64,000 nt of DNA from Candidatus Iainarchaeum sp. GTDB lineage: Archaea; Iainarchaeota; Iainarchaeia; Iainarchaeales; DTGL01. Positions 13,630 to 63,278 of this stretch are shown one piece after another; positions within the stretch are counted from its first letter, which is position 1, and the number at the start of each line of letters is the position of its first letter. The stretch is from contig JAOAJX010000001.1 of assembly GCA_026413945.1 (NCBI GenBank), forward strand, positions 124,001 through 188,000, in the 5' to 3' direction. A program made the position numbers and the translations under genes. The notes below the pieces were generated by a model. The model was not told where the DNA came from, made no database searches, and worked only from the letters and a program-made list of their open reading frames with translations.

Positions 13630-14190
13630 AGATTCACAGAGCCTTTTGAAGTTAGTTAAACGTTCGGAGTAAGAATAGCTTTTCAGAAACCATTCATGAG
13701 AAATTAATTTGTTACAAGTAGGCAATATTATTTCCTTACTGTTTTGATCCGTTCTCGTTGTGGGTAGTTTCGAAAGAAAGTTCTCTAAAAGAATTTTTTC
13801 ATTATTGCTGCTAACCCATTGTCTATCTAAAACTTTTTCGCATGCTTTTGCAGCCAGTTGTTCATTTATTTGCTTGTCACTTAGGTAATAAACTGCTTTC
13901 CATTCGCCTTTAGATGACCATCTATGTGCTGGATTCTCACCAGTATTAAAGAAGTTAATCAGTTTCTGAAAAGAATCAACTGGGATTATAATTGAATTTT
14001 TAGAAGGCCTTATAAAAGGTACATCTGACAAAACCCCTTTTCTATGGTACTTATATCTTTTACCACTAGATTTGTTAACTGCCTGTGTATAGCCATAAAG
14101 TGCCCTAAATAATTTTTGATATGTGTAAGATGCTCTACTAACTGACTTTGGAATTATAAATTTATATTGTACAAAATAGGCTTTTAGCGT
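13612..14190 (-). pseudogene. ORF lacking a start codon; possible 5'-truncated gene
   Basis: The minus-strand frame is open from 14190 to the stop at 13612 (192 codons) and reads like real protein: FIIPKSVSRASYTYQKLF, ALYGYTQAVNKSSGKRYKYH, then WSSKGEWKAVYYLSDKQI. Yet no ATG, GTG or TTG occurs before the TTG at 14031, which would discard 53 coding-looking residues. Stop codons lie immediately upstream of 14190. The gene is therefore either 5'-truncated or begins at a rare codon such as ATT or ATA. The family is not recognised. If only the TTG is used, the product is 139 residues. Confidence 0.45.
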
Positions 14191-14243
14191 TTAGACCACC
14201 CTCTATAGTTCCGATAATACTGTTAGAGTATATTTGGAGCTTT

Positions 14244-14301
14244 TTATGTATAAGTATCTAAGTATTATTGCGATAATTATTAAAATATTGCTTATACATA
14301 A
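14244..14301. repeat. 11-bp inverted repeat with 36-bp spacer
   Basis: TTATGTATAAG (14244-14254) and CTTATACATAA (14291-14301) are perfect reverse complements separated by 36 bases. They lie between the start-less ORF and the PRC-barrel gene. They may be an operator pair or element remnant; nothing decides it. Confidence 0.55.
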
Positions 14302-14347
14302 TGTTTTTTAGCTTTTGATCAATAACTTTAAGTCTCTTTTTAATAAC

Positions 14348-14599
14348 TTACTTTGGTACTTCCTGTCTTGTCGAAATAAGCAAAATATCCTTAGACGAGA
14401 TGACTTTGCTGTAAGGTATGCTTTTTTCAGTTATTATCTTTCTAGCTTCAGCTTTTGAGTTCGCTTTTAAAGGTTCTGTAGTTATTGTTTCTATTCTTCC
14501 CTTTTCGAGGTTAATTACAAGGTCAAAAACTTTACCTTTGCGTTCGCCATCAATTGTATATATTTCTTTCCCAAAAAGTTCTGAAAGTCTCACAGTCAT
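14348..14599 (-). CDS. PRC-barrel domain protein
   Basis: An 83-residue single PRC-barrel: LSELFGKEIYTIDGERKGKVFDLVINLEKGRIETI, then the closing strands IPYSKVISSKDILLI. PRC-barrels occur as small stand-alone proteins in many archaea; some take part in cell division or RNA-related functions, but the job of this one is unknown. A strong GGGAGGG lies shortly before the ATG. A related 86-residue protein is encoded at 62015-62275. Confidence 0.85.
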   Translation of the reverse strand: MTVRLSELFGKEIYTIDGERKGKVFDLVINLEKGRIETITTEPLKANSKAEARKIITEKSIPYSKVISSKDILLISTRQEVPK

Positions 14600-14735
14600 T
14601 TAAAACCCTCCCTTCAACAATTATAAAATCTCATAATATATTATCTTCTTAATATTTAAACCTTGTGTTTAGTCTACTAATTTTATTGCTCACATTAACG
14701 TTTTGATTATCGGAACAATGACCTCTCAGTATTTT

Positions 14736-15602
14736 TTAGCTATTTAACTCATCAAGTGGACTCTTAACCTTTTTTAGCTCCTCAACAGAAACTTTCGTGT
14801 ATATTTGCGTAGTTGACAAATTACTATGCCCCAAAAGCTCTTGTATTTTTCTTATATTCTCTCCTCGTTCAAGTAAATGTGTTGCGAAAGTATGCCTAAA
14901 GCTGTGCGGTGTCACATTTTTATTTATCCCCGCCTTAATCCTAGCTTTCCTCACAATCCTTTGAATAGTGTCCACTGATATTGGCCTTCCCTTATAATCT
15001 GAAAAAACATATTCGCTATTTTTTTTCCTCTTTTGCAAATAACTTTTAAAATCATTTATCCAAGAATCTGAAAGTATTATAATTCGGTCTTTGTTTCCTT
15101 TCCCACCTCTTACAAGTGCTGTTTTTTCAGCCAAATTTAAATCATTTATTTTCAACTTAGTGACTTCACTAACTCGCAGACCGCTTGAATACAAAAGCAT
15201 CATTATAAGCTTATCTTTCTTTCTTGTAGTGGAATTTATAATTCTCAGTACCTCTTCGCGGGTCATCACAACAGGCAACTTGGTGCCTTTTTTTGGTCTT
15301 TTTATATCTTCCATAACCTCGCTTTTAAGATACTCTTTGAAGAAATGCCTCAACGCAGAATAAACCAAGCACATTGTTGAATCCGTTGCATTATTCTGTT
15401 TTTTGTATGCCATGTAAGCAATGATATCTTCTCGATTTACATTTAAGGGATCTTTCTTAACAAACTCGAGAAACTCTTTTAAGTAAAGCAAATACATCTT
15501 CAGAGTTCTGGCTGAAAAACCACCAACTATAAGTTCTCTTCTAAACGCTTCTACGTACTTCTCAATAAAATCATCTTTTTGTGACTTTGCAATGTCCATC
15601 AT
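14736..15602 (-). CDS. xerA: Tyrosine recombinase, XerA-like
   Basis: A 288-residue tyrosine recombinase. The N-terminal SAM-like core-binding domain (about 10-95) precedes the catalytic domain with the full set: Arg in SSGLRVSEV, Lys in GGKGNKDR, HSFRHTFATHLLERG (His-x-x-Arg), GHSNLSTTQIY with the nucleophilic Tyr. Size and motifs match archaeal XerA and bacterial XerC/D, which resolve chromosome dimers at dif. It could also be an element integrase, since it is near the initiator tRNA. Two adjacent ATGs are present. A candidate dif site is described at 57288-57315. Confidence 0.9.
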   Translation of the reverse strand: MMDIAKSQKDDFIEKYVEAFRRELIVGGFSARTLKMYLLYLKEFLEFVKKDPLNVNREDIIAYMAYKKQNNATDSTMCLVYSALRHFFKEYLKSEVMEDIKRPKKGTKLPVVMTREEVLRIINSTTRKKDKLIMMLLYSSGLRVSEVTKLKINDLNLAEKTALVRGGKGNKDRIIILSDSWINDFKSYLQKRKKNSEYVFSDYKGRPISVDTIQRIVRKARIKAGINKNVTPHSFRHTFATHLLERGENIRKIQELLGHSNLSTTQIYTKVSVEELKKVKSPLDELNS

Positions 15603-46910: not shown

Positions 46911-47906
46911 TTGGATAGTGCTAAAGCTAGCGCTCCAGGCAATCTTTTTCTGACTGGCGAGCACGCAGTAGTTTATGGGAAACCAGCAATAATTGCTGCT
47001 GTTAATAAAAGAGCTTATTGCACTTCATTCAAATCAAAAGGCAATACCATTTCTGTTATAAGCAGAGAATTTGGTATTGCAAAAGCTAAAATTAAGGAAA
47101 ATAATATTGTTAACCATGAAGGAAAAAATGAGCTCTTTGTTTTCTTTGATTTGGTTGAAATGCTTATGCATAAGCATGATATTAGAGACGGCCTTGAGAT
47201 AAGAATTGAATCAGATGTGCCAGTAGAGTCCGGCCTTAGCTCAAGCACAGCAACTTTAAGCGCAGCATTGTATTCACTTAATCTTCTTTTTGATCTTAGA
47301 ATAAAAAAAGAAAACTTTTTTGATTATCTATACCCTCTACAAGTCAAGATACATGGTGGCAAAGCATCTGGTAGTGAAATTTTCTCAAGTTCAATTGGTG
47401 GTTATAACAAAATTCAAAAGATAGATTGTGAAGGAAAAACAAAAATAAACTCCAAAGAGCTAGGAAAACACAGTTTTAGCATAGTGATAGGTAATACAAA
47501 AGTAAGAGCCCCCACAGCGCTTACTGTTGGCATGCACGTACCATCACTTATGAGAAGGTTTCCTAATATGGTTGAAAAGGAATTCGAAAAGATAGAATCT
47601 ATATGTGAAAAGATTGAAAAAGCACTTGAGGCTGAAGATATTTACAGAATTGGCAAACTCATAAACAAAAATCAAAAAATACTATCAAAACTCGGTCTTA
47701 GTCATCCAAAGATTGATGACTGTATTAACGAAGCACTCCATGCTGGTGCTTTGGGTGCAAAACTTAGTGGCGGTGGCTGGGGCGGAGTGATGTTTGCACT
47801 TGCAAAAAGAGGGGAAGAAGAAAAAATAGCTAAAGCCATAGAGTCCACAGGAGCTGAAGCAATAATCACCACAATAGGCGGTGAAGGAGTAAAAGCATGC
47901 GATTAA
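46911..47906 (+). CDS. mvk: Mevalonate kinase
   Basis: A 331-residue GHMP kinase phosphorylating mevalonate to mevalonate-5-phosphate. Motif 1 is ASAPGNLFLTGEHAVVYGKPA, motif 2 is VPVESGLSSSTATLSAAL (ATP loop, SSSTA in place of the more common GSSAA), and motif 3 is GAKLSGGGWGGVMFAL. The start is TTG at 46911 preceded by GGTGATTAG; no closer ATG exists before motif 1. The 3' end overlaps the UbiX-like gene by 10 bases. Confidence 0.93.
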   Translation: MDSAKASAPGNLFLTGEHAVVYGKPAIIAAVNKRAYCTSFKSKGNTISVISREFGIAKAKIKENNIVNHEGKNELFVFFDLVEMLMHKHDIRDGLEIRIESDVPVESGLSSSTATLSAALYSLNLLFDLRIKKENFFDYLYPLQVKIHGGKASGSEIFSSSIGGYNKIQKIDCEGKTKINSKELGKHSFSIVIGNTKVRAPTALTVGMHVPSLMRRFPNMVEKEFEKIESICEKIEKALEAEDIYRIGKLINKNQKILSKLGLSHPKIDDCINEALHAGALGAKLSGGGWGGVMFALAKRGEEEKIAKAIESTGAEAIITTIGGEGVKACD

Positions 47907-48445
47907 TAGTTGCATCGTGTGGTGCAAGCGGTATTAATTACGTATCATTACTAATTAAAGAACTTAAAAAGAGAAAAGTAGAGATGCATCTTATATTTTC
48001 TGAATGGGCAAAGAAAGTAGCAAATTTTGAAGAGCAACAATTAACTTATAAAGGAATAAAAATTTACAATAACGACGAATTAGATGCGAGCATCTCTAGC
48101 ACAAGCTTTCCAGTTGATGCAATGGTTATATTGCCAGCAAGCATAAAAACTGCAAGCGATATTGCCAATGCACACACTGATAACCTTATTGCAAGATGCG
48201 CAGATAATATGCTTAGACAAAGAAAAAAGCTCATCCTTTGCATAAGAGAAACTCCTTTGAGCACACCTGCACTTAAAAATCTTTACAAAATTTCTCTTTA
48301 TGGCGGCATCGTTTTTCCTCTTTCCCCAGCTTTTTATTCCAAGCCAAAAAGCATTTCTGATATCGAGGCTTTTATAGTTGGAAAGATCTTAGACCTTCTT
48401 TCAATCGAGAATGAACTCTACAAGAGGTGGAACTATGGACTTTAG
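47897..48445 (+). CDS. ubiX: UbiX-type flavin prenyltransferase
   Basis: A 182-residue flavoprotein of the UbiX/Pad1 family. It has SCGASGINYVSLLIKEL (phosphate loop), VILPASIKTASDIANAHTDNLIARCADNML, and ILCIRETPLSTPALKNLYKIS (prenyl/FMN site). It attaches DMAP to FMN, giving the prenylated-FMN cofactor of UbiD enzymes. It immediately precedes and overlaps the UbiD-type gene, as expected for a cofactor supplier. The prenyl donor comes from this same pathway. Confidence 0.92.
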   Translation: MRLIVASCGASGINYVSLLIKELKKRKVEMHLIFSEWAKKVANFEEQQLTYKGIKIYNNDELDASISSTSFPVDAMVILPASIKTASDIANAHTDNLIARCADNMLRQRKKLILCIRETPLSTPALKNLYKISLYGGIVFPLSPAFYSKPKSISDIEAFIVGKILDLLSIENELYKRWNYGL

Positions 48446-49796
48446 AAGTTTTATTCAGAAGCTCGATAAAAGCAAGGAACTGATAAAAGTAAGTAAACCC
48501 GTATCTAAGAGATTTGAAGCAGCAGCAATACTTAAAGCTCTTGATGGCAAACCAGTACTGTTTGAAAACATAAAAGAATCTCAATTCAAGGTTGCTGGGA
48601 ATGTGTTTTCCTCGAAACATTACATCGCAGATTACTTTGGTTGCGATGAAAGAGATTTAATAAAAATAATGGTTAATGCGTTGAACAAACCAAAAGAATT
48701 GAATATTATAAAGAAAAGCCCATGTCAAGATATAATTGTTGAAGAAAAAGATGTTGATTTGGACAAATTGCCAATACTAAGGCATACGAAAATTGACGGT
48801 GGTAACTACATAACTTCTGGTGTCTTCATTGCAAAAGACAAAGAATTAGGCATGAACGCTTCTTTTCATCGATGTATGCAATTAGATAAAAAAACATTCT
48901 CCGTTAGGGTTTGTGAACGTAATCTCTATGAGTTTTTACAAAGAGCATCCGGTGAACTTAATGTTGCAGTATGTATTGGCAATCCTGCTAGCGTCTTGTT
49001 AGCTGGAGCTACAAGCCCCCCAATTGGACAGTTCGAGTTTGAGATTGCAAGTGCACTCGAGAGTTTTGGGGTTGTTAAGGCACAATTTGCAGATGTATAT
49101 GTTCCTTCAAGTTCTGAATTTATAATAGAAGGCACACTTACAATGAATGAGCTTGCTAACGAAGGCATGTTTTTAGATCTTACTGGTACAAGGGACTTTG
49201 TTAGAAAACAACCAATTCTAAAGGTTAAGAGAATAACCCATAGAAAAAATGCGATATGGCATGCGTTATTACCGGGTGGTAACGAGCATGGGCTGCTTAT
49301 GGGAATGCCGAGAGAACCAACAATATTTTCAGAAGTTAGCAAAGTTGCAAAATGTTTAAATGTAAACATAACTCAAGGAGGCTGTTCATGGCTTCATGCT
49401 GTAGTTCAAGTGCAGAAAGAAAGCGATGAACAAATAAAAAGAGTGATTGAAGCTGCATTTAAAGGCCATAGCTCCTTAAAGCATGTTTTTGTTGTTGATG
49501 CTGACATCGATGCTAATAATATGCAAGAAGTTGAATGGGCCTTTGCAACAAGATTGCAAGGCGACAAGCAAATACACATATTCCCAAAACAAAAAGGTTC
49601 TAGCTTGGATCCAAGTGCTGAGCACCCAAGCAGAATAACATGTAAAGTTGGCTTTGACTTAACTATCCCTATGGGCAGAGATAAAGCAGATTTTACAAAG
49701 GTAAACTATGAAAGAATTGAGTTGGATAAATATTTGGTGAAAAAAGATGAAGCTAAGCAAAGAAGAAAAAGAGTATCTGGAAGGAAAACACGGTAA
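48435..49796 (+). CDS. UbiD-family decarboxylase, probable anhydromevalonate phosphate decarboxylase
   Basis: A 453-residue UbiD-type decarboxylase. Seen: MDFRSFIQKLDKSKELIKV, SPCQDIIVEEKDVDLDKLPIL, LPGGNEHGLLMGMPREPTIF, ITQGGCSWLHAVVQ and VVDADIDANNMQEVEWAFATR (conserved acidic and metal/prFMN region). In the archaeal mevalonate route described from Aeropyrum, this family turns trans-anhydromevalonate 5-phosphate into isopentenyl phosphate. Context (UbiX, AcnX subunits and IPK) strongly supports that substrate. ATG at 48435 is chosen; it overlaps the ubiX end by 11 bases. Confidence 0.9.
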   Translation: MDFRSFIQKLDKSKELIKVSKPVSKRFEAAAILKALDGKPVLFENIKESQFKVAGNVFSSKHYIADYFGCDERDLIKIMVNALNKPKELNIIKKSPCQDIIVEEKDVDLDKLPILRHTKIDGGNYITSGVFIAKDKELGMNASFHRCMQLDKKTFSVRVCERNLYEFLQRASGELNVAVCIGNPASVLLAGATSPPIGQFEFEIASALESFGVVKAQFADVYVPSSSEFIIEGTLTMNELANEGMFLDLTGTRDFVRKQPILKVKRITHRKNAIWHALLPGGNEHGLLMGMPREPTIFSEVSKVAKCLNVNITQGGCSWLHAVVQVQKESDEQIKRVIEAAFKGHSSLKHVFVVDADIDANNMQEVEWAFATRLQGDKQIHIFPKQKGSSLDPSAEHPSRITCKVGFDLTIPMGRDKADFTKVNYERIELDKYLVKKDEAKQRRKRVSGRKTR

Positions 49797-50922
49797 TGCA
49801 GCAAAAAAAGCAATGGAAATTCTTGTAGCACTCGGAAAAATTTACTCAGCAAAGAGATTAATTACTGTAGACAGTGTCCAGATTTCTGGTGTAAGTTATC
49901 ACACTATTGGTGATGCAGGCTTAGAATTGTTGGAAGACCTTGCTAAAGATGGCAAAATAAAAGTTCCTCTAACAACTTTAAATCCAGCTGGCATAGATAT
50001 TGAAAATTGGCAATGCTTGGGCATAGATAAAAATTTTGCTGAAAAGCAACAACGCATTTTAAGCGCTTTCAAGAAGATTGGGGTTATTGTGAGTTGCACT
50101 TGTACACCTTACTTAATAGGCAATATTCCAAAGTACGGCTCACATATTGCATGGAGTGAAAGCAGTGCCGTATGTTTTGCAAACTCGATTATTGGTGCAA
50201 GAACAAATCGCGAAAGCGGTTTATCGAGCCTAGCAAGTGCTATTACTGGAAAAACACCTGATTATGGCCTTCATATAGAAAAGAACCGCAAACCAAAATA
50301 TCTTGTAGAAGTCAAAGCAAACCTTACTGATATAACTGATTTTGGCGCACTTGGTAAAATTATCGGTGAAAAAATCGGAGGTGAAATACCTCTGATAAGA
50401 GGAATTTCTGATGCTGATCTTGATGAATTGAAAAGTCTTTGTGCCTCAATTGCGACTTTTGGTGGTACTGCACTTTTTCATATAAAAGATTTGACCCCCG
50501 AAAAAGTAAAAGCACCTAAGAAAAAATTATACATAACATCAGCCGATATTGAAAAAGCGAAGAACTCATTTTTTGATACTAATGAATATGACTTCATTGC
50601 AATAGGTTGTCCACATGCTTCCATAACAGAAATCCAGCAGATTGCCTCAGCACTTGATGGCAAAATGGTAAAAAAAGAATTTTGGGTGTTCTGTGCAAGA
50701 CCAGTAAAGAAAATTTCCGATCTTATGGGTTACACCGAGGTTATTGAAAAGGCTGGTGCCAGATTTGCTTGCGACACTTGTATGGCTGTTGCCCCGCTTA
50801 AAGGTAGATTTAATGGCATGATTACAAATTCAGCAAAAGCATGCTTCTATGGGCGCGGTTCAAACAATTTTAAAGTAAGACTTGCTACACTTGAAGAATG
50901 CATAAAGGTGGCTTTAAATTGA
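49747..50922 (+). CDS. Phosphomevalonate dehydratase, large subunit (AcnX)
   Basis: A 391-residue aconitase-X large subunit. VDSVQISGVSYHTIGDAGLELLEDLA opens the catalytic core. Cysteines suited to the iron-sulfur cluster lie in VSCTCTPYLIGN and in FACDTCMAVAPL. IAWSESSAVCFANSIIGARTNRE and NSAKACFYGRG are also family-typical. With the small subunit it dehydrates mevalonate-5-phosphate to trans-anhydromevalonate-5-phosphate. GGTGAAAAAAG precedes the ATG, which lies inside the end of the UbiD gene (50-base overlap). Confidence 0.92.
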   Translation: MKLSKEEKEYLEGKHGNAAKKAMEILVALGKIYSAKRLITVDSVQISGVSYHTIGDAGLELLEDLAKDGKIKVPLTTLNPAGIDIENWQCLGIDKNFAEKQQRILSAFKKIGVIVSCTCTPYLIGNIPKYGSHIAWSESSAVCFANSIIGARTNRESGLSSLASAITGKTPDYGLHIEKNRKPKYLVEVKANLTDITDFGALGKIIGEKIGGEIPLIRGISDADLDELKSLCASIATFGGTALFHIKDLTPEKVKAPKKKLYITSADIEKAKNSFFDTNEYDFIAIGCPHASITEIQQIASALDGKMVKKEFWVFCARPVKKISDLMGYTEVIEKAGARFACDTCMAVAPLKGRFNGMITNSAKACFYGRGSNNFKVRLATLEECIKVALN

Positions 50923-51305
50923 TTCTTAAAGGTAGAAAAATTTCTTCAGGAAAGGCTGAAGGCGAATGCCTTTTCAGCGAACAACCAATATCATTTTTTG
51001 GGGGAATTGATCCTGATACTGGAATTATAATTGAAAAGGGACACCCGCTTGAAGGAGTGAACATAGCAGGAAAAATACTTATTTTCCCTCATGGCAAGGG
51101 TTCTACTGTTGGCAGTTATACAATATACCGCTTAAAAAAGAACAAAAAAGCACCTGCAGCAATGATTCTTAAAGAATGCGAAACAATAGTTGCAATAGGT
51201 GCAATAATTTCAGAAATCCCTTGTATTGATAAAATAAAAATAGAAAAACTAAATAAAATTACTATGCTGAAAGTTGATGCAGATAAAGCAGTGGTGATTT
51301 TTTGA
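50919..51305 (+). CDS. Phosphomevalonate dehydratase, small subunit (AcnX, DUF126)
   Basis: A 128-residue swivel-domain protein: GRKISSGKAEGECLFSEQPISFFGGIDPDTG, then LIFPHGKGSTVGSYTIYRL (catalytic Ser/phosphate loop) and AAMILKECETIVAIGAIISEIPCID. It completes the AcnX active site. The TTG at 50919, with GGTGG just before it and a TTGA overlap with the large subunit stop, is the likely start; an ATG at 50898 would add seven residues. Confidence 0.9.
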   Translation: MILKGRKISSGKAEGECLFSEQPISFFGGIDPDTGIIIEKGHPLEGVNIAGKILIFPHGKGSTVGSYTIYRLKKNKKAPAAMILKECETIVAIGAIISEIPCIDKIKIEKLNKITMLKVDADKAVVIF

Positions 51306-52090
51306 AAGAACTCGTTTTAATTAAACTCGGCGGCTCTCTAATAACTGACAAACGTAAAAAGGAGAAAGCTAGGCTAAATTTGATTGCCTCATTAGCACAT
51401 GAAATAAAACCATTCATTGGGAAAAAAAGACTCATTGTTGCCCACGGTGGTGGAAGCTTTCCTCATTATCCCGCAAAAGAGTACAGGGTCAATGAAGGCA
51501 TTTTAAATAAAAACAGCCTGAAGGGCTTTTGCCTCACCCATGATGCCGCAGCAAGACTAAATCGCATTGTTGTAGGCGAGTTTCTAAAAGCAGGCATAAA
51601 TGCAATAAGCATGCAGCCAAGCTCTTTCATGTTCTGCAAAAATGGAAAAATAATTCAAAGCAATCTTTGCGCAATAGAAGAAGCTTTGCAGCATAACATA
51701 TTGCCAGTGCCGTATGGCGATGCTGTGTTTGACACTGAAAAGGGCATAACAATAATATCAACAGAACAGATACTTTCACACTTAGCTTTAAAACTCAAAG
51801 CTAAAAGGATAATCGTTGCAGGCATAGTTAATGGAGTTTATACATCAGATCCATTGCTAAGTCCTTGTGCAAAGTTAATACCTAAAATCACTGCAAAGAA
51901 TTTTCCAAATATAAGAAATATGCTTTCTGGCTCTCACGGCGTAGATGTTACTGGCGGAATGCTTTCAAAAGTTGAAGACCTCGTTGCTCTCTCAAACAAG
52001 GGAATTAGGGCCCAAATAATTGGCGCAGAGCAAAAAGGCAATTTGAAAAAGGCAATTTTAGGAAAAAGAATCGGCACTATAATTGGCTAA
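51302..52090 (+). CDS. Isopentenyl phosphate kinase
   Basis: A 262-residue amino-acid-kinase fold protein: LIKLGGSLITDKRKKEKA, VAHGGGSFPHYPAKEY (with the His that distinguishes IPK), VPYGDAVFDTEKGITIISTEQI, IVAGIVNGVYTSDP and DVTGGMLSKVEDLVAL. It phosphorylates isopentenyl phosphate to IPP. The start is TTG at 51302 overlapping the preceding stop, with GGTGATTTT upstream, repeating the coupling used by the small AcnX subunit. Confidence 0.93.
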   Translation: MKELVLIKLGGSLITDKRKKEKARLNLIASLAHEIKPFIGKKRLIVAHGGGSFPHYPAKEYRVNEGILNKNSLKGFCLTHDAAARLNRIVVGEFLKAGINAISMQPSSFMFCKNGKIIQSNLCAIEEALQHNILPVPYGDAVFDTEKGITIISTEQILSHLALKLKAKRIIVAGIVNGVYTSDPLLSPCAKLIPKITAKNFPNIRNMLSGSHGVDVTGGMLSKVEDLVALSNKGIRAQIIGAEQKGNLKKAILGKRIGTIIG

Positions 52091-52141
52091 GAGTTAAACA
52101 CCATTAAAAACCATTTTTAACTTTTTGGTGAATAATAGTTT

Positions 52142-52716
52142 ATGCCTTTACCGAAAAACAGGTTAAGACAACCGAAAACTTCAAGAGCAGTGGTAATAAA
52201 GAGAGAATTAAAACAAATGACTAGTGAGCAAATCGCAAGTCTGATTTCCGCTGCCGCAAAACAACCACTACCGGTAAGAGTTTTGTTGGCAAAAGGCCTA
52301 AATACACGAAGACTCAAGGCAAGAGGATTTACCGCAAAAAATTGGCAGAATTAGGGTATAAGGCCAGCGAATTAAGACTACTCGGATATTCTGCAATTGA
52401 CTTAAAACGTGCTGGATTTAGTGTATATGACATAATACATGCCGGATTTACTTTAGATGAATTAAGGCGGCTAGGCAGCAAATTTGCCCCAGGTGGGCCA
52501 AAAAAAGTAGGATATACTGCAGGTGAATTATTTGCTGCTGGACATAGCTTAGAAGAATTAAGAAGATTCGGATATACTGCAATCGACTTAAGAGCTGCTG
52601 GATTTGATGTGGATGAATTAGTACATGCTGGATATACTGCGCCCGAATTAATACTTGCCGGTTTTTCCCAAGTACAAGTAAATGCTGCTTTTAGCAGAAA
52701 AGCCAAAGCCAAATAA
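52142..52716 (+). pseudogene. Decapeptide-repeat protein split by a -1 frameshift at A AAA AAT
   Basis: Two overlapping frames together encode one repeat protein. Frame one runs 52142-52354 (70 residues: basic N terminus, then LLAKGLNTRRLKARGFTAKN) and stops at TAG. Frame two continues to 52716 with LAELGYKASELRLLGYSAID onwards. A -1 shift at the heptamer A AAA AAT (52336-52342) joins them with no break in the ten-residue repeat (consensus LxxAG[FY][ST]xx[ED], about twelve copies, one interrupted by KFAPGGPKK). The joined product has about 190 residues. It may be programmed frameshifting, a true lesion, or a sequencing error in the A6 run. The role is unknown; it sits between IPK and IDI2. 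Confidence 0.7.
52336..52342 (+). promoter_or_regulatory. Candidate -1 slippery heptamer
   Basis: AAAAAAT is in register as A AAA AAT (X XXY YYZ) with frame-one codons AAA and AAT. Slipping back one base continues directly with TTG of the second repeat frame. No pseudoknot was established by eye downstream. Confidence 0.4.
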
Positions 52717-52796
52717 GACTGTTAAATAGTACTAGTTCACGAAACCCAGCAAAACAATTATATACTACAAACTGCTTTCTTTATACTGATGTTTTA

Positions 52797-52925
52797 ATGT
52801 GTGCAGATTCCAGTTTAACGAATAAAGAAAAGCAAGAATGTGAAGAAAGCGCAAAAAGTTTTGGGGCATCTTTAGGGAAACTATTTCTTGCAATGGGTTT
52901 GGAAGAGTTGAAGAAAGAACCTTAA
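52797..52925 (+). CDS. Small ORF, 42 residues
   Basis: ATG at 52797 to TAA at 52923-52925: MCADSSLTNKEKQECEESAK, then SFGASLGKLFLAMGLEELKK and EP. It reads like a charged start with an amphipathic C-terminal helix. There is no clear ribosome binding site. It lies in the gap between the repeat-protein gene and IDI2, where the sequence is otherwise AT-rich. Evidence is limited to an open frame with protein-like composition. Confidence 0.35.
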   Translation: MCADSSLTNKEKQECEESAKSFGASLGKLFLAMGLEELKKEP

Positions 52926-52972
52926 AGATTAATTGAAAGCCTCTAAGTGAATAAAGAAAATAAAGAATAACC

Positions 52973-52981
52973 TTTTAAATA
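52973..52981 (+). promoter_or_regulatory. TATA-like box for IDI2
   Basis: TTTTAAATA lies 23-31 bases before the IDI2 ATG with no ribosome binding site. IDI2 therefore seems to have its own leaderless promoter, unlike the coupled genes before it. Confidence 0.45.
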
Positions 52982-53003
52982 AAGTTGCAATCGTATCTTT
53001 TTT

Positions 53004-54008
53004 ATGTCAATCAGAGATAGAAAGCGCGAGCACATTGAGATTTCACTCACACAAAATGTAAACTTCCGCTCAACTACAACATGGCTTGAGAAAGTGCTTT
53101 TGGAATATTCTGCTTTGCCAGAAATAGACCTTGATGACGTTTGTCTTGAGACTGATTTTTTGGGTAAAAAACTAAAAGCACCACTTATGGTTAGCGGCAT
53201 GGTTGGAGGTATAGAAGAAGCGAAGCAGATAAATAGAGATATTGCGAAAGCATGTGAATCTCTTGGTATTGCGTTTGGTGTTGGTTCTCAAAGAGCAATG
53301 CTTGAAAATCCACAGCTCAAGCATACTTATTTTGTGAGAGATGTCGCACCAAATATTTTTGTTGCTGGTAATTTAGGAGTAACACAACTAAAGGATTATT
53401 CATTGGAACAAATCGAATATGCCTTAGAATCGATTGGTGCTGATGCCTTGGCAATACACATAAATGCTGCACAGGAATCAATACAACCAGAGGGTACGCC
53501 AAGATTTAAAGGGTGTCTTAAAAAGATTGATGAGGTTTCTAAAAAGCTAAGTAAGCCAGTCTATGTAAAAGAAGTTGGTCATGGGGTCTCTTTTCGAGTA
53601 GCGCAAGAACTAGCAAAAACAAACATAAAAGCAATCGATGTACAAGGTGCCGGTGGCACTTCATGGACTGCAATAGAATTTATTAGAAATAAGTCAGCTT
53701 TCGGTGAAACATTTTGGGATTTTGGCATACCAACTGCAAGCAGCGTGGCAGAGTGCAGAAAAGCCTTCAAAGGAATCATAATTGCTAGTGGTGGCATACG
53801 CTCAGGCCTCGATGCTGTAAAATCGTTTGTGCTTGGAGCAAACATGGTTGCTATCGCAAAACCAGTCCTTGAAGCCCAAGCCAAAGGTGGTCACAAAGAG
53901 GTTGAAAATTACCTTAGCAAAATAATTCACGAAATAAAAGTTGCCCTTTTCCTGATTGGGGCAAAAAGCCCTAAAGAAGCAGTTGGGCGTGGCAGATTAC
54001 AACCCTAG
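53004..54008 (+). CDS. fni: Isopentenyl-diphosphate delta-isomerase, type 2 (FMN)
   Basis: A 334-residue type 2 IDI: RDRKREHIEISL at the N terminus, LMVSGMVGGIEEAKQINRDIA, GVGSQRAML, VAGNLGVTQL, ALAIHINAAQESIQPEGTPRF (catalytic Gln region), VKEVGHGVS, AIDVQGAGGTSWTAIE, and IASGGIRSGLDAVKSFVLGANMVAIA (FMN phosphate). It isomerises IPP to DMAPP and closes the cluster. GGPP synthase at 32.5 kb uses both products. Confidence 0.95.
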   Translation: MSIRDRKREHIEISLTQNVNFRSTTTWLEKVLLEYSALPEIDLDDVCLETDFLGKKLKAPLMVSGMVGGIEEAKQINRDIAKACESLGIAFGVGSQRAMLENPQLKHTYFVRDVAPNIFVAGNLGVTQLKDYSLEQIEYALESIGADALAIHINAAQESIQPEGTPRFKGCLKKIDEVSKKLSKPVYVKEVGHGVSFRVAQELAKTNIKAIDVQGAGGTSWTAIEFIRNKSAFGETFWDFGIPTASSVAECRKAFKGIIIASGGIRSGLDAVKSFVLGANMVAIAKPVLEAQAKGGHKEVENYLSKIIHEIKVALFLIGAKSPKEAVGRGRLQP

Positions 54009-60829: not shown

Positions 60830-62023
60830 ATGGCTGCAGATTTATTCATTTCCAATGATAAGCTGAACATACCCAGTCAATCGTTTGCCACTCTGATTAA
60901 AGAGATAAAATATGAAAGCATAGAGAACTCTATAGTAAAAAAAGTGCAAGAGCTCCCGCAAGATGCAATAAAGATCAAGCTTTATACAAAAGCCGGTGAA
61001 AAAGATCTTGTGATCTGCAACAAATATTTTTTTATCTCCAAATATCAGCTTCCGGCAAAACAGCAAACTTCCGGTTTTGGTGCTTTTTTGAACAAACATC
61101 TCAGATCAAAGAGGCTCAACTCAATAGATCAACTCGATTCGGAACGAGTTTTTATGCTAAACTTTGGAGATCATTTTCTAGTGCTTGAGCTTTTTTCAAA
61201 AGGAAATGTCATCTTGACCGACCAATCAAAGAAAGTGCTTGGCTGTCTGCGCACTGAAGAATGGAGCGCAAGAAAAATAAAAAAAGGATTTCAATATGTC
61301 GAACCACCAAGTTCTACCTTGCTAGATAAAATAACTGCCGAAGATTTTGTTATAATCGCAAAGAAAGATCCAGAAGCAAAAATAATTCCTTGGCTTGTAA
61401 AATCTTTTGGTTTGTCACCTTTGATTGCCGAAGCGTCTTGTCTCGAAGTGTGTATAGAAAAAGATATCAGTATCGCTGCTATCCCAGAATCAGAGCTAAA
61501 GAAACTATATGAAAAAACAAAGCTGATGCTTTCAATGTCTGATGCGAGTGGCAGAGCATATGTTGTAGAACACCGCAACTCCTTATACCTCCTCAATTTT
61601 CTACCAAAAATTTTTGCATCTTCTTGCATTCATGAATTCAAAGGGCTGAATGATGCGCTTAATGAGATTTTTGTTATGCAAAATAATTCCAAGATAAAAA
61701 TAATGCCAGTAAATAAAAAGGCAGAAGAGCTTCAAAAAGCTTTGGAAAAACAGATTGCAAAAATAAAGAGTTGTGAGAGATCCGCATTGGAATTAAAAGA
61801 TAAAGCCCGTACAATATATGAAAATTTCAATGATATTTGCTCTGCTTTTGAGTTTGCTAAAGCAGAAACAAATAGTAAAAAGGGAAAAGGGCAAATTATG
61901 TATAATTTAACCTTTGGCAACGTCTTGCTAAAGAGCATCGATTTCAGCAAACGCTCTTTAAAGATAGAGATTCACACCACAGAAAATAAAGACAATAAAA
62001 AAGAGAGGTCGCAATCAAGTTGA
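60830..62023 (+). CDS. RqcH/NEMF-like protein lacking the NFACT-R domain
   Basis: A 397-residue protein matching the N-terminal half of archaeal RqcH/Rqc2 (NFACT): LLNKHL-like FLNKHLRSKRLNSIDQLDSE, FLVLELFSKGNVILTD, and SARKIKKGFQYVEPPSS. It continues through the helix-hairpin region and a coiled coil (about 285-345). It then ends without the C-terminal NFACT-R (DUF814) domain; typical homologues have about 650 residues. It could still bind tRNA or 50S subunits but would lack part of the machinery. The remainder could be encoded elsewhere. The stop overlaps the convergent PRC-barrel gene by 9 bases. Confidence 0.78.
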   Translation: MAADLFISNDKLNIPSQSFATLIKEIKYESIENSIVKKVQELPQDAIKIKLYTKAGEKDLVICNKYFFISKYQLPAKQQTSGFGAFLNKHLRSKRLNSIDQLDSERVFMLNFGDHFLVLELFSKGNVILTDQSKKVLGCLRTEEWSARKIKKGFQYVEPPSSTLLDKITAEDFVIIAKKDPEAKIIPWLVKSFGLSPLIAEASCLEVCIEKDISIAAIPESELKKLYEKTKLMLSMSDASGRAYVVEHRNSLYLLNFLPKIFASSCIHEFKGLNDALNEIFVMQNNSKIKIMPVNKKAEELQKALEKQIAKIKSCERSALELKDKARTIYENFNDICSAFEFAKAETNSKKGKGQIMYNLTFGNVLLKSIDFSKRSLKIEIHTTENKDNKKERSQSS

Positions 62024-62275
62024 AACAACTTCGCGTTCATCAACTATGAAAACATCGCTTACAGCAGTAACTGCAGCATAAGGAACTTCTATTATTGGCT
62101 CGGTGCTTCTCAACCTTTTCACTATCTTGCTATTCTTGTCTATTTCTATAACTAATTTCTCTATTTCACCAGTACGCTCATTTATTAGAAGATCTGAGAG
62201 CTTGCCGAGTTCTTCGCCCCTATTAGTAATTACCCTTTTTGCAGCAATTTCTCTCGCAATAGTGTACTTATACAT
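62015..62275 (-). CDS. PRC-barrel domain protein
   Basis: An 86-residue single PRC-barrel: REIAAKRVITNRGEELGKLSDLLINERTGEIEKLVIEI, then EVPYAAVTAVSDVFIVD. It is related in layout to the protein at 14348-14599 but clearly distinct in sequence. AGGGTGAAACC precedes the ATG. Stand-alone archaeal PRC-barrels include division-related proteins; no partner is visible here. Confidence 0.85.
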   Translation of the reverse strand: MYKYTIAREIAAKRVITNRGEELGKLSDLLINERTGEIEKLVIEIDKNSKIVKRLRSTEPIIEVPYAAVTAVSDVFIVDEREVVST

Positions 62276-62439
62276 GGTTTCACCCTATAAAGTAAAAATA
62301 TTAAATTTTATAAACCCTTACCTCACAACCCTATACATAATAAACTTTTTTTAGCACCTCATTAAACTTCGTATAGTTATACGCTTTTCTAATATTTAAA
62401 CATATCGTTTCTAAATCTGAATATTCAAAAGGTGATCTT

Positions 62440-62658
62440 TTGCAAGAAAAAAATGGGTCGACTAAAAAATTTTGGACTGCGAGAAAACTTGTGCTGATTT
62501 TTTTTCTTATTTTTGGAATTGCGATAGGCGCTATTGTACAGCATTACGTCTTAGAGCCTTTGCTTGATGTTAGCTTAGCAGAGCAGCTAAAAAAATGTAA
62601 AACAGAAAATTTGGAAATACACGACTCACTCAAAAAATGTATCGATGTTTCAAAATAA
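62440..62658 (+). CDS. Small single-pass membrane protein
   Basis: A 72-residue protein with a basic N terminus (QEKNGSTKKFWTARK), one hydrophobic segment (residues about 17-37, LVLIFFLIFGIAIGAIVQHYV) and a charged tail with two Cys (KKCKTENLEIHDSLKKCIDV). The positive-inside rule places the N terminus in the cytoplasm and the tail outside. The TTG start has GGTGATCTT before it. The family is not recognised. Confidence 0.7.
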   Translation: MQEKNGSTKKFWTARKLVLIFFLIFGIAIGAIVQHYVLEPLLDVSLAEQLKKCKTENLEIHDSLKKCIDVSK

Positions 62659-62681
62659 AACTAAGCGAAAATAATATTAAA

Positions 62682-63278
62682 TCAACCATTCAATTTTTGC
62701 ACTAGGACTTTACCGCAAGGCTTTTCTTCCTTAAAGACAAACGCTTCAAAAATAAATATCTCTGTGTCAGGCATGCGCCAAAAATTTTTTTGCAAACCTG
62801 CTTTGAGACACGCTTGTTCCAAGAACGTTTCACTGTTCCATCCATATTCAATAGCAACTTGAGGCAAAAGAAGGCCACTATGATACGACCTTCTTATAAT
62901 TACTCCATGTTTTCCAACAACAACTATCTTTGGTGCCATTTTGTTATCTATTTTCTCTGGTTTGCTTAGCACTGATATTTCAACAATACATTTTTTTAGC
63001 TCCTCATCGTACACAGGTAAAAATCTTGGATCACGCGAAGAGCCGACAGCTGCCTCAATAACTGCTTTAATAAGCGGCATTTCAGGATATGGTATTCCAA
63101 TGCAACCACGAAGCTCATTTTCAGGATAAGTATGCAGTGTAACAAAAACACCTTTTTTCTGCATTAAGCCTTTTTCCTTGATATTTGCTGAGTAAATTCT
63201 ACCAGTTAGATTATAATATTCTATAGCTTTCCTAGCCATGATAATGAGTTCTTCGCATTCTTTTTCAGACAGTTCCAT
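62682..63278 (-). CDS. AMMECR1 domain protein
   Basis: A 198-residue AMMECR1 protein: FVTLHTYPENELRGCIGIPYP (the signature LRGCIG), AAVGSSRDPRFLPVYDEEL (SSRDPRF), IEISVLSKPEKI-like EISVLSKPE, and LLLPQVAIEYGWNSETFLEQAC. The family is universal in archaea and eukaryotes, with suggested but unproven links to radical or memo-type chemistry. ATG at 63278 is preferred; a TTG at 63299 is also in frame. Confidence 0.92.
   Translation of the reverse strand: MELSEKECEELIIMARKAIEYYNLTGRIYSANIKEKGLMQKKGVFVTLHTYPENELRGCIGIPYPEMPLIKAVIEAAVGSSRDPRFLPVYDEELKKCIVEISVLSKPEKIDNKMAPKIVVVGKHGVIIRRSYHSGLLLPQVAIEYGWNSETFLEQACLKAGLQKNFWRMPDTEIFIFEAFVFKEEKPCGKVLVQKLNG

What the first reader, a model, noticed from the sequence alone, without database searches (positions are those of the whole stretch)
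52142..52716. Decapeptide-repeat gene split exactly at an in-register A AAA AAT slippery heptamer inside the mevalonate cluster
Seen: repeats of about ten residues (LxxAG[FY][ST]xx[ED]) run through both frames and stay in phase only if the ribosome slips -1 at 52336-52342. The heptamer fits the X XXY YYZ rule with zero-frame codons AAA and AAT. Known: A-rich heptamers of this kind support -1 frameshifting (for example A AAA AAG in bacterial dnaX). Inference: either a programmed frameshift giving 70- and about 190-residue products, or an indel in the A6 run. The location between IPK and IDI2, with no known pathway role, adds interest.
Basis: partly seen in the sequence, partly recalled or inferred. 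Interest (0 to 1): 0.72.

Follow-up and report, generated by a model that had tools for sequence, protein, structure and literature searches.

The report
Archaeal repeat gene missing one base
A short archaeal gene encoding a ten-residue-repeat protein is split in two because one base is missing next to a run of A; intact copies in two related genomes show that this is most likely a simple deletion (or a base-call error), not a special ribosome-slipping signal.

Summary
Two overlapping frames (52142-52354 and 52342-52716) encode one decapeptide-repeat protein, and the zero-frame heptamer A AAA AAT lies at 52336-52342. The Pfam family Decapeptide (PF25296) matches, and the two halves align end to end with one orthologue.

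The programmed-frameshift reading is not supported. Both orthologues found (two other Diapherotrites genomes) read through the site in one open frame. A DNA alignment differs by one missing column: window GC-AAAAAATTGG, closest orthologue GCTAAAAAATTGG. Losing that base creates A AAA AAT automatically. Intact genes of this window hold 21 zero-frame A AAA AAT and 116 A AAA AAN. Removing one A from their 87 A-runs of seven or more would leave a slippery heptamer in 48. Downstream RNA is no more structured than shuffles.

Best reading: a one-base deletion, real or in the consensus, in a patchily distributed accessory gene. Low-level slippage may rescue some full-length protein. The same heptamer works in Sulfolobus fucA1, whose full-length relatives also differ from it by one base.

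The gene is not a conserved part of the mevalonate cluster. In other genomes of the family this slot holds a HAD-type hydrolase gene, which was not found in this genome.

The parts
52142..52354 (+). ORF1, zero frame: conserved N-terminal part plus the first decapeptide repeats, 70 aa, stop TAG 52352-52354
   Evidence: aligned with two orthologues
52342..52716 (+). ORF2, -1 frame: decapeptide repeats to the C-terminus, 124 aa from TTG; this frame is open for further codons upstream of the TTG (162 codons in all)
   Evidence: PF25296 E = 2e-30
52336..52342 (+). A AAA AAT heptamer at the frame junction; one base missing here relative to both orthologues
52322..52327 (+). AGAGGA, Shine-Dalgarno-like, 8 nt before the heptamer; it encodes a conserved Arg-Gly and is also present in the unshifted orthologue L072, so it is no evidence for programming
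52127..52131 (+). GGTGA, possible ribosome-binding site of ORF1, 10 nt before the ATG
   Evidence: read from the sequence; inference
51302..52090 (+). Upstream neighbour: isopentenyl phosphate kinase (amino acid kinase family)
   Evidence: PF00696
53004..54008 (+). Downstream neighbour: type 2 isopentenyl diphosphate isomerase (FMN-dependent)
   Evidence: PF01070; synteny

Best explanation
The locus is a decapeptide-repeat (PF25296) gene of about 191 codons that has lost one base at the junction of a GCN alanine codon and a following run of A (ancestral reading GCN AAA AAA TTG, now GCA AAA AAT TGG). The loss is either a true recent deletion in this population or an error in the assembled consensus. 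If it is true, the main product is a 70-residue N-terminal fragment. The A AAA AAT heptamer arises automatically from the loss and may let a small fraction of ribosomes slip -1 and make the full-length protein, but it was not selected as a programmed signal. Shown: the split, the one-base difference from the orthologues, open frames in both orthologues, the background frequency of the heptamer, and the lack of structure. Inferred: direction of the change (deletion), its recency, and incidental slippage.
For: Orthologue L073/G027 is one open frame of 309 aa and L072/G048 is open across the site up to its contig end. The only gap in the window within about 100 nt around the site is one column: window GC-AAAAAATTGG, L072 GCTAAAAAATTGG, L073 GCAGATGAACTGA. 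In 58 apparently intact window genes there are 213 coding-strand A-runs of six or more, 116 zero-frame A AAA AAN and 21 A AAA AAT; shortening the 87 A-runs of seven or more leaves an in-frame X XXY YYZ in 48. Folds of the downstream RNA have z-scores of -0.8 to +0.6. The gene is patchy: N-terminal orthologues in only 2 of the 86 other genomes searched in the phylum. The singleton, BLAST-validated class of frameshift is usually sequencing error or recent indel (PMC3711429).
Against: No second lesion in 124 codons after the site and a well-kept reading frame, which would also fit continued translation. The same heptamer is a proven -1 site in an archaeon (fucA1, about 10% in vitro; PMC8211752), where full-length relatives also differ by one base in the A stretch. 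Only two orthologues were found, at 57% and 45% identity, both from other families of the order.
Confidence: 0.82

Rival explanations
1. Programmed -1 ribosomal frameshift: two tRNAs slip on A AAA AAT, giving a 70-aa fragment and a full-length product of about 191 aa in a regulated ratio.
For: The heptamer fits the rule and lies exactly at the junction. The downstream frame is intact. Same heptamer and similar layout (short first ORF, overlap) as S. solfataricus fucA1 (PMC8211752, PMC8037382). An SD-like AGAGGA lies 8 nt upstream.
Against: Not conserved: both orthologues are single frames. No downstream structure above shuffles. AGAGGA encodes conserved residues and is present in the unshifted orthologue. 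The heptamer is common and not avoided in other genes.
Confidence: 0.12
2. ORF2 is translated separately by termination-reinitiation at TTG 52342, overlapping the ORF1 stop at 52352, giving two cooperating half-proteins.
For: Start and stop lie 10 nt apart in overlapping frames.
Against: ORF2 has no ATG or GTG start ahead of the TTG, no convincing ribosome-binding site before the TTG, and the break falls inside a run of repeats at a site that is continuous in both orthologues.
Confidence: 0.03
3. Phase variation: the A-run length fluctuates in the population, switching the gene on and off.
For: A-runs are hypermutable by slipped-strand mispairing (PMC3711429); repeat proteins are frequent targets.
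Against: A6 is short for phase variation; the nearest orthologue also has A6, with a different wobble base, so run-length change is not the only way to derive it; no surface or secretion signal was tested.
Confidence: 0.03

Closest known systems
Sulfolobus (Saccharolobus) solfataricus alpha-L-fucosidase gene fucA1, -1 frameshift at A-AAA-AAT (PMC8211752, PMC8037382)
   Same: Archaeal gene split in two overlapping frames with the identical zero-frame heptamer; full-length relatives differ by one base in the A stretch.
   Different: fucA1 has tandem rare CAC codons, a putative stem-loop, the split in two strains, and biochemical proof of the full-length product; here there is no structure, no conservation and no expression evidence.
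Pfam PF25296 Decapeptide repeat region
   Same: ORF2 carries the ten-residue repeat, which starts in the last part of ORF1; joint score 120 bits against a cut-off of 45.
   Different: The window copy is interrupted; the conserved N-terminal ~45 residues are not covered by the Pfam model.
DotG/IcmE of the Legionella Dot/Icm type IV secretion system (repeat region)
   Same: Same kind of 10-residue repeat (30-bp tandem repeats in icmE, PMC2639597); PDB chain 7muc_AG is the best sequence match.
   Different: Only the repeat region matches; score 89.7 bits against the DotG/IcmE cut-off of 750.
dnaX A AAA AAG frameshift of enterobacteria
   Same: A-rich heptamer.
   Different: dnaX has an upstream SD-like stimulator, a downstream hairpin and conservation across genera (PMC3711429); here the heptamer alone.

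Membership tests
Programmed -1 ribosomal frameshift gene | Slippery X XXY YYZ heptamer in zero frame inside the ORF overlap | tested here: met
   A AAA AAT at 52336-52342, but 116 A AAA AAN heptamers occur in intact genes of the window
Programmed -1 ribosomal frameshift gene | Split and slippery site conserved in orthologues | tested here: not met
   Both orthologues are uninterrupted at the site
Programmed -1 ribosomal frameshift gene | Downstream structure 5-9 nt from the site | tested here: not met
   Folds of 60-140 nt have z-scores from -0.8 to +0.6; pseudoknots not predicted by this tool
Programmed -1 ribosomal frameshift gene | Upstream SD-like stimulator | tested here: inconclusive
   AGAGGA 8 nt upstream, but coding-constrained and shared with the unshifted orthologue L072
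Programmed -1 ribosomal frameshift gene | Full-length trans-frame product made in cells | not testable with these tools
   Needs proteomics, ribosome profiling or a reporter
PF25296 Decapeptide repeat protein | Score above Pfam gathering cut-off | tested here: met
   ORF2 104.7 bits, joined protein 120.3 bits, cut-off 45
DotG/IcmE (NF033900) | Score above the curated equivalog cut-off of 750 bits | tested here: not met
   89.7 bits for ORF2 and 165.1 bits for the intact orthologue, repeat region only
Mevalonate-cluster conserved member | Present between IPK and IDI2 in related genomes | tested here: not met
   Absent from the 4 other same-genus and 2 same-family genomes; the slot holds a HAD-type gene in G001, G003, G005, G006

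The most novel reading that the evidence does not exclude
The gene is expressed by functional -1 slippage at A AAA AAT: a second archaeal cellular gene of the fucA1 type and the first in the Diapherotrites, in which a one-base loss is tolerated because the ribosome restores the frame often enough to keep the protein useful.
Probability: 0.12. Interest if true: 0.55.

Novelty: new member of a known kind. Interest (0 to 1): 0.16.

Why it matters
Archaeal -1 frameshifting rests on essentially one proven cellular gene (fucA1), so a second case would matter. The analysis shows why this candidate is weak. In an A-rich genome a single lost base in an A-run leaves a perfect-looking slippery heptamer about half the time (48 of 87 runs), so the heptamer alone should not be read as a programmed signal.

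Tried and rejected
Searching the named genome collection with the joined protein alone found nothing; the three-sequence alignment recovered two orthologues. Viral contigs and phage records gave nothing; plasmids gave one 32% repeat-only match in a phytoplasma. A structure prediction of the intact orthologue with the window pieces had not finished at the last collecting call and is not used. A dN/dS comparison of the two sides with L072 (0.23 over 63 codons before, 0.77 over 31 after) was judged inconclusive: few codons, and repeat register is ambiguous. The idea that other window genes are also broken was tested on the short NFACT-family gene at 60830-62023: relatives have the same length, so it is not truncated. 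DotG/IcmE membership was rejected.

Full report
What was reported.

Check of the observation. The sequence is as described. ORF1 runs 52142-52354 (70 aa) and ORF2 52342-52716 (124 aa from a TTG) in the -1 frame. Zero-frame codons at the end of ORF1 are GCA AAA AAT TGG CAG AAT TAG, so the heptamer is in the X XXY YYZ register. Read with a -1 step, the ten-residue repeats stay in phase. ORF2 alone and the joined protein match Pfam PF25296 'Decapeptide' (E = 2e-30 and 3e-35). Codon usage favours the ORF1 frame before the site and the ORF2 frame after it. The two halves are thus one coding sequence.

Orthologues. Two true orthologues that share the N-terminal part were found: G027 (locus L003, same record as L073) and G048 (locus L004, same record as L072). 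The public titles name both as Candidatus Diapherotrites MAGs, and they belong to the same order as the window's genome, so the window is placed in that phylum. L073 has one uninterrupted frame of 309 aa. L072 is open through the site up to its contig end, 57% identical over 98 residues. The codons at the site are GCT AAA AAA TTG GCA in L072 and GCA GAT GAA CTG AAT in L073, against GCA AAA AAT TGG CAG in the window. A DNA alignment of about 100 nt around the site needs one single-base gap in the window and no other internal gap. The missing base may be an A of a former A7 or the wobble base of the alanine codon; the two cannot be told apart. No orthologue of the N-terminal part was found in the other 84 genomes searched in the phylum, including four of the same genus.

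Is the heptamer informative? No. Any sequence GCN AAA AAA TTG that loses the wobble base or an A becomes GCA AAA AAT TGG or its equivalent, which contains A AAA AAT (from GCA, by necessity). In 58 apparently intact genes of the window (36% G+C) there are 213 coding-strand A-runs of six or more, 116 zero-frame A AAA AAN and 21 zero-frame A AAA AAT. Deleting one A from each of the 87 A-runs of seven or more leaves a zero-frame X XXY YYZ heptamer in 48. The heptamer is neither rare nor avoided here.

Stimulators. The RNA after the heptamer folds no better than dinucleotide shuffles (z -0.8 to +0.6); pseudoknots were not tested. AGAGGA lies 8 nt upstream at dnaX-like spacing (recalled, not looked up), but it encodes the conserved Arg-Gly of the repeat and is identical in the unshifted orthologue L072.

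Assembly quality. The split is the only one noticed among the window's genes; with 213 A-runs of six or more in apparently intact genes the assembly is not generally prone to homopolymer errors. One suspicious short gene (NFACT family, 397 aa) has the same length in relatives and is intact. This makes a real mutation more likely than a consensus error but does not exclude the latter; reads were not available.

Context. In this genome the gene lies between IPK and IDI2, but in G001, G003, G005 and G006 that slot is occupied by a HAD-type hydrolase gene (PF00702, E = 2e-11) and the decapeptide gene is absent. The HAD gene was found in five of the other six genomes of the family and not in the window's genome, whose completeness is given as 92%. 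The decapeptide gene is therefore an accessory gene, not a pathway member. In G048 it lies beside a folylpolyglutamate-synthase-like gene and in G027 beside long extracellular-type proteins (gene identities by eye).

Family. The repeat resembles that of DotG/IcmE of the Dot/Icm secretion system (30-bp repeats in icmE, PMC2639597), but the curated DotG/IcmE score is far from met, so only the repeat type is shared. What these proteins do in Diapherotrites is not known; a scaffold or binding role is a guess from the repeat architecture.

How it most likely works. If the sequence is right, ribosomes make mainly a 70-residue fragment. Some may slip on A AAA AAT: the same heptamer gives about 10% full-length product in vitro in S. 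solfataricus fucA1 (PMC8211752), and there too the full-length relatives differ by one base in the A stretch. Such incidental rescue is plausible but unproven here, and fucA1 also has rare codons and a putative stem-loop that this site lacks. A survey of frame transitions in prokaryotic genomes attributes BLAST-validated singletons mostly to sequencing errors or recent indels (PMC3711429), which is the class this case falls in.

Verdict. Observation confirmed; programmed frameshift not supported; one-base lesion (real or consensus) most likely, 0.82. Interest is low, with a modest residual case for fucA1-like rescue.

Noticed in passing
52090-53004 versus G001:C33:40537-41286, G003:C93:25732-26481, G002:C8:25473-26198, G005:C14:22733-23458, G006:C24:23661-24365: In relatives a HAD-type hydrolase gene sits just upstream of IDI2, after IPK where IPK is on the same stretch (G001, G003, G005, G006). 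It is not found in this genome, where the decapeptide gene occupies the slot. A phosphatase beside IPK and IDI2 in the mevalonate cluster may be worth a look.
   Followed up: partly
46911-54008: A complete-looking archaeal mevalonate cluster: GHMP kinase, UbiX- and UbiD-like proteins, aconitase X large and swivel subunits, IPK, IDI2, fitting the archaeal route through phosphomevalonate dehydratase.
   Followed up: partly
60830-62023: NFACT-family protein of only about 390 residues; the same short length in related genomes suggests a lineage-wide reduced RqcH-like protein.
   Followed up: partly
L005/L006 (G009:C1, G042:C15): Open frames of about 800 aa made largely of decapeptide repeats in two genomes of the same order.
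   Followed up: no
L004 and L017 (G048:C59 start, G048:C7 end): Near-identical decapeptide repeats lie at two contig ends, so the orthologue was probably broken by assembly within its repeats.
   Followed up: partly
14000-14760 and 61900-62720, minus strand: Two short frames that look like PRC-barrel-type proteins by eye lie in apparent intergenic gaps.
   Followed up: no
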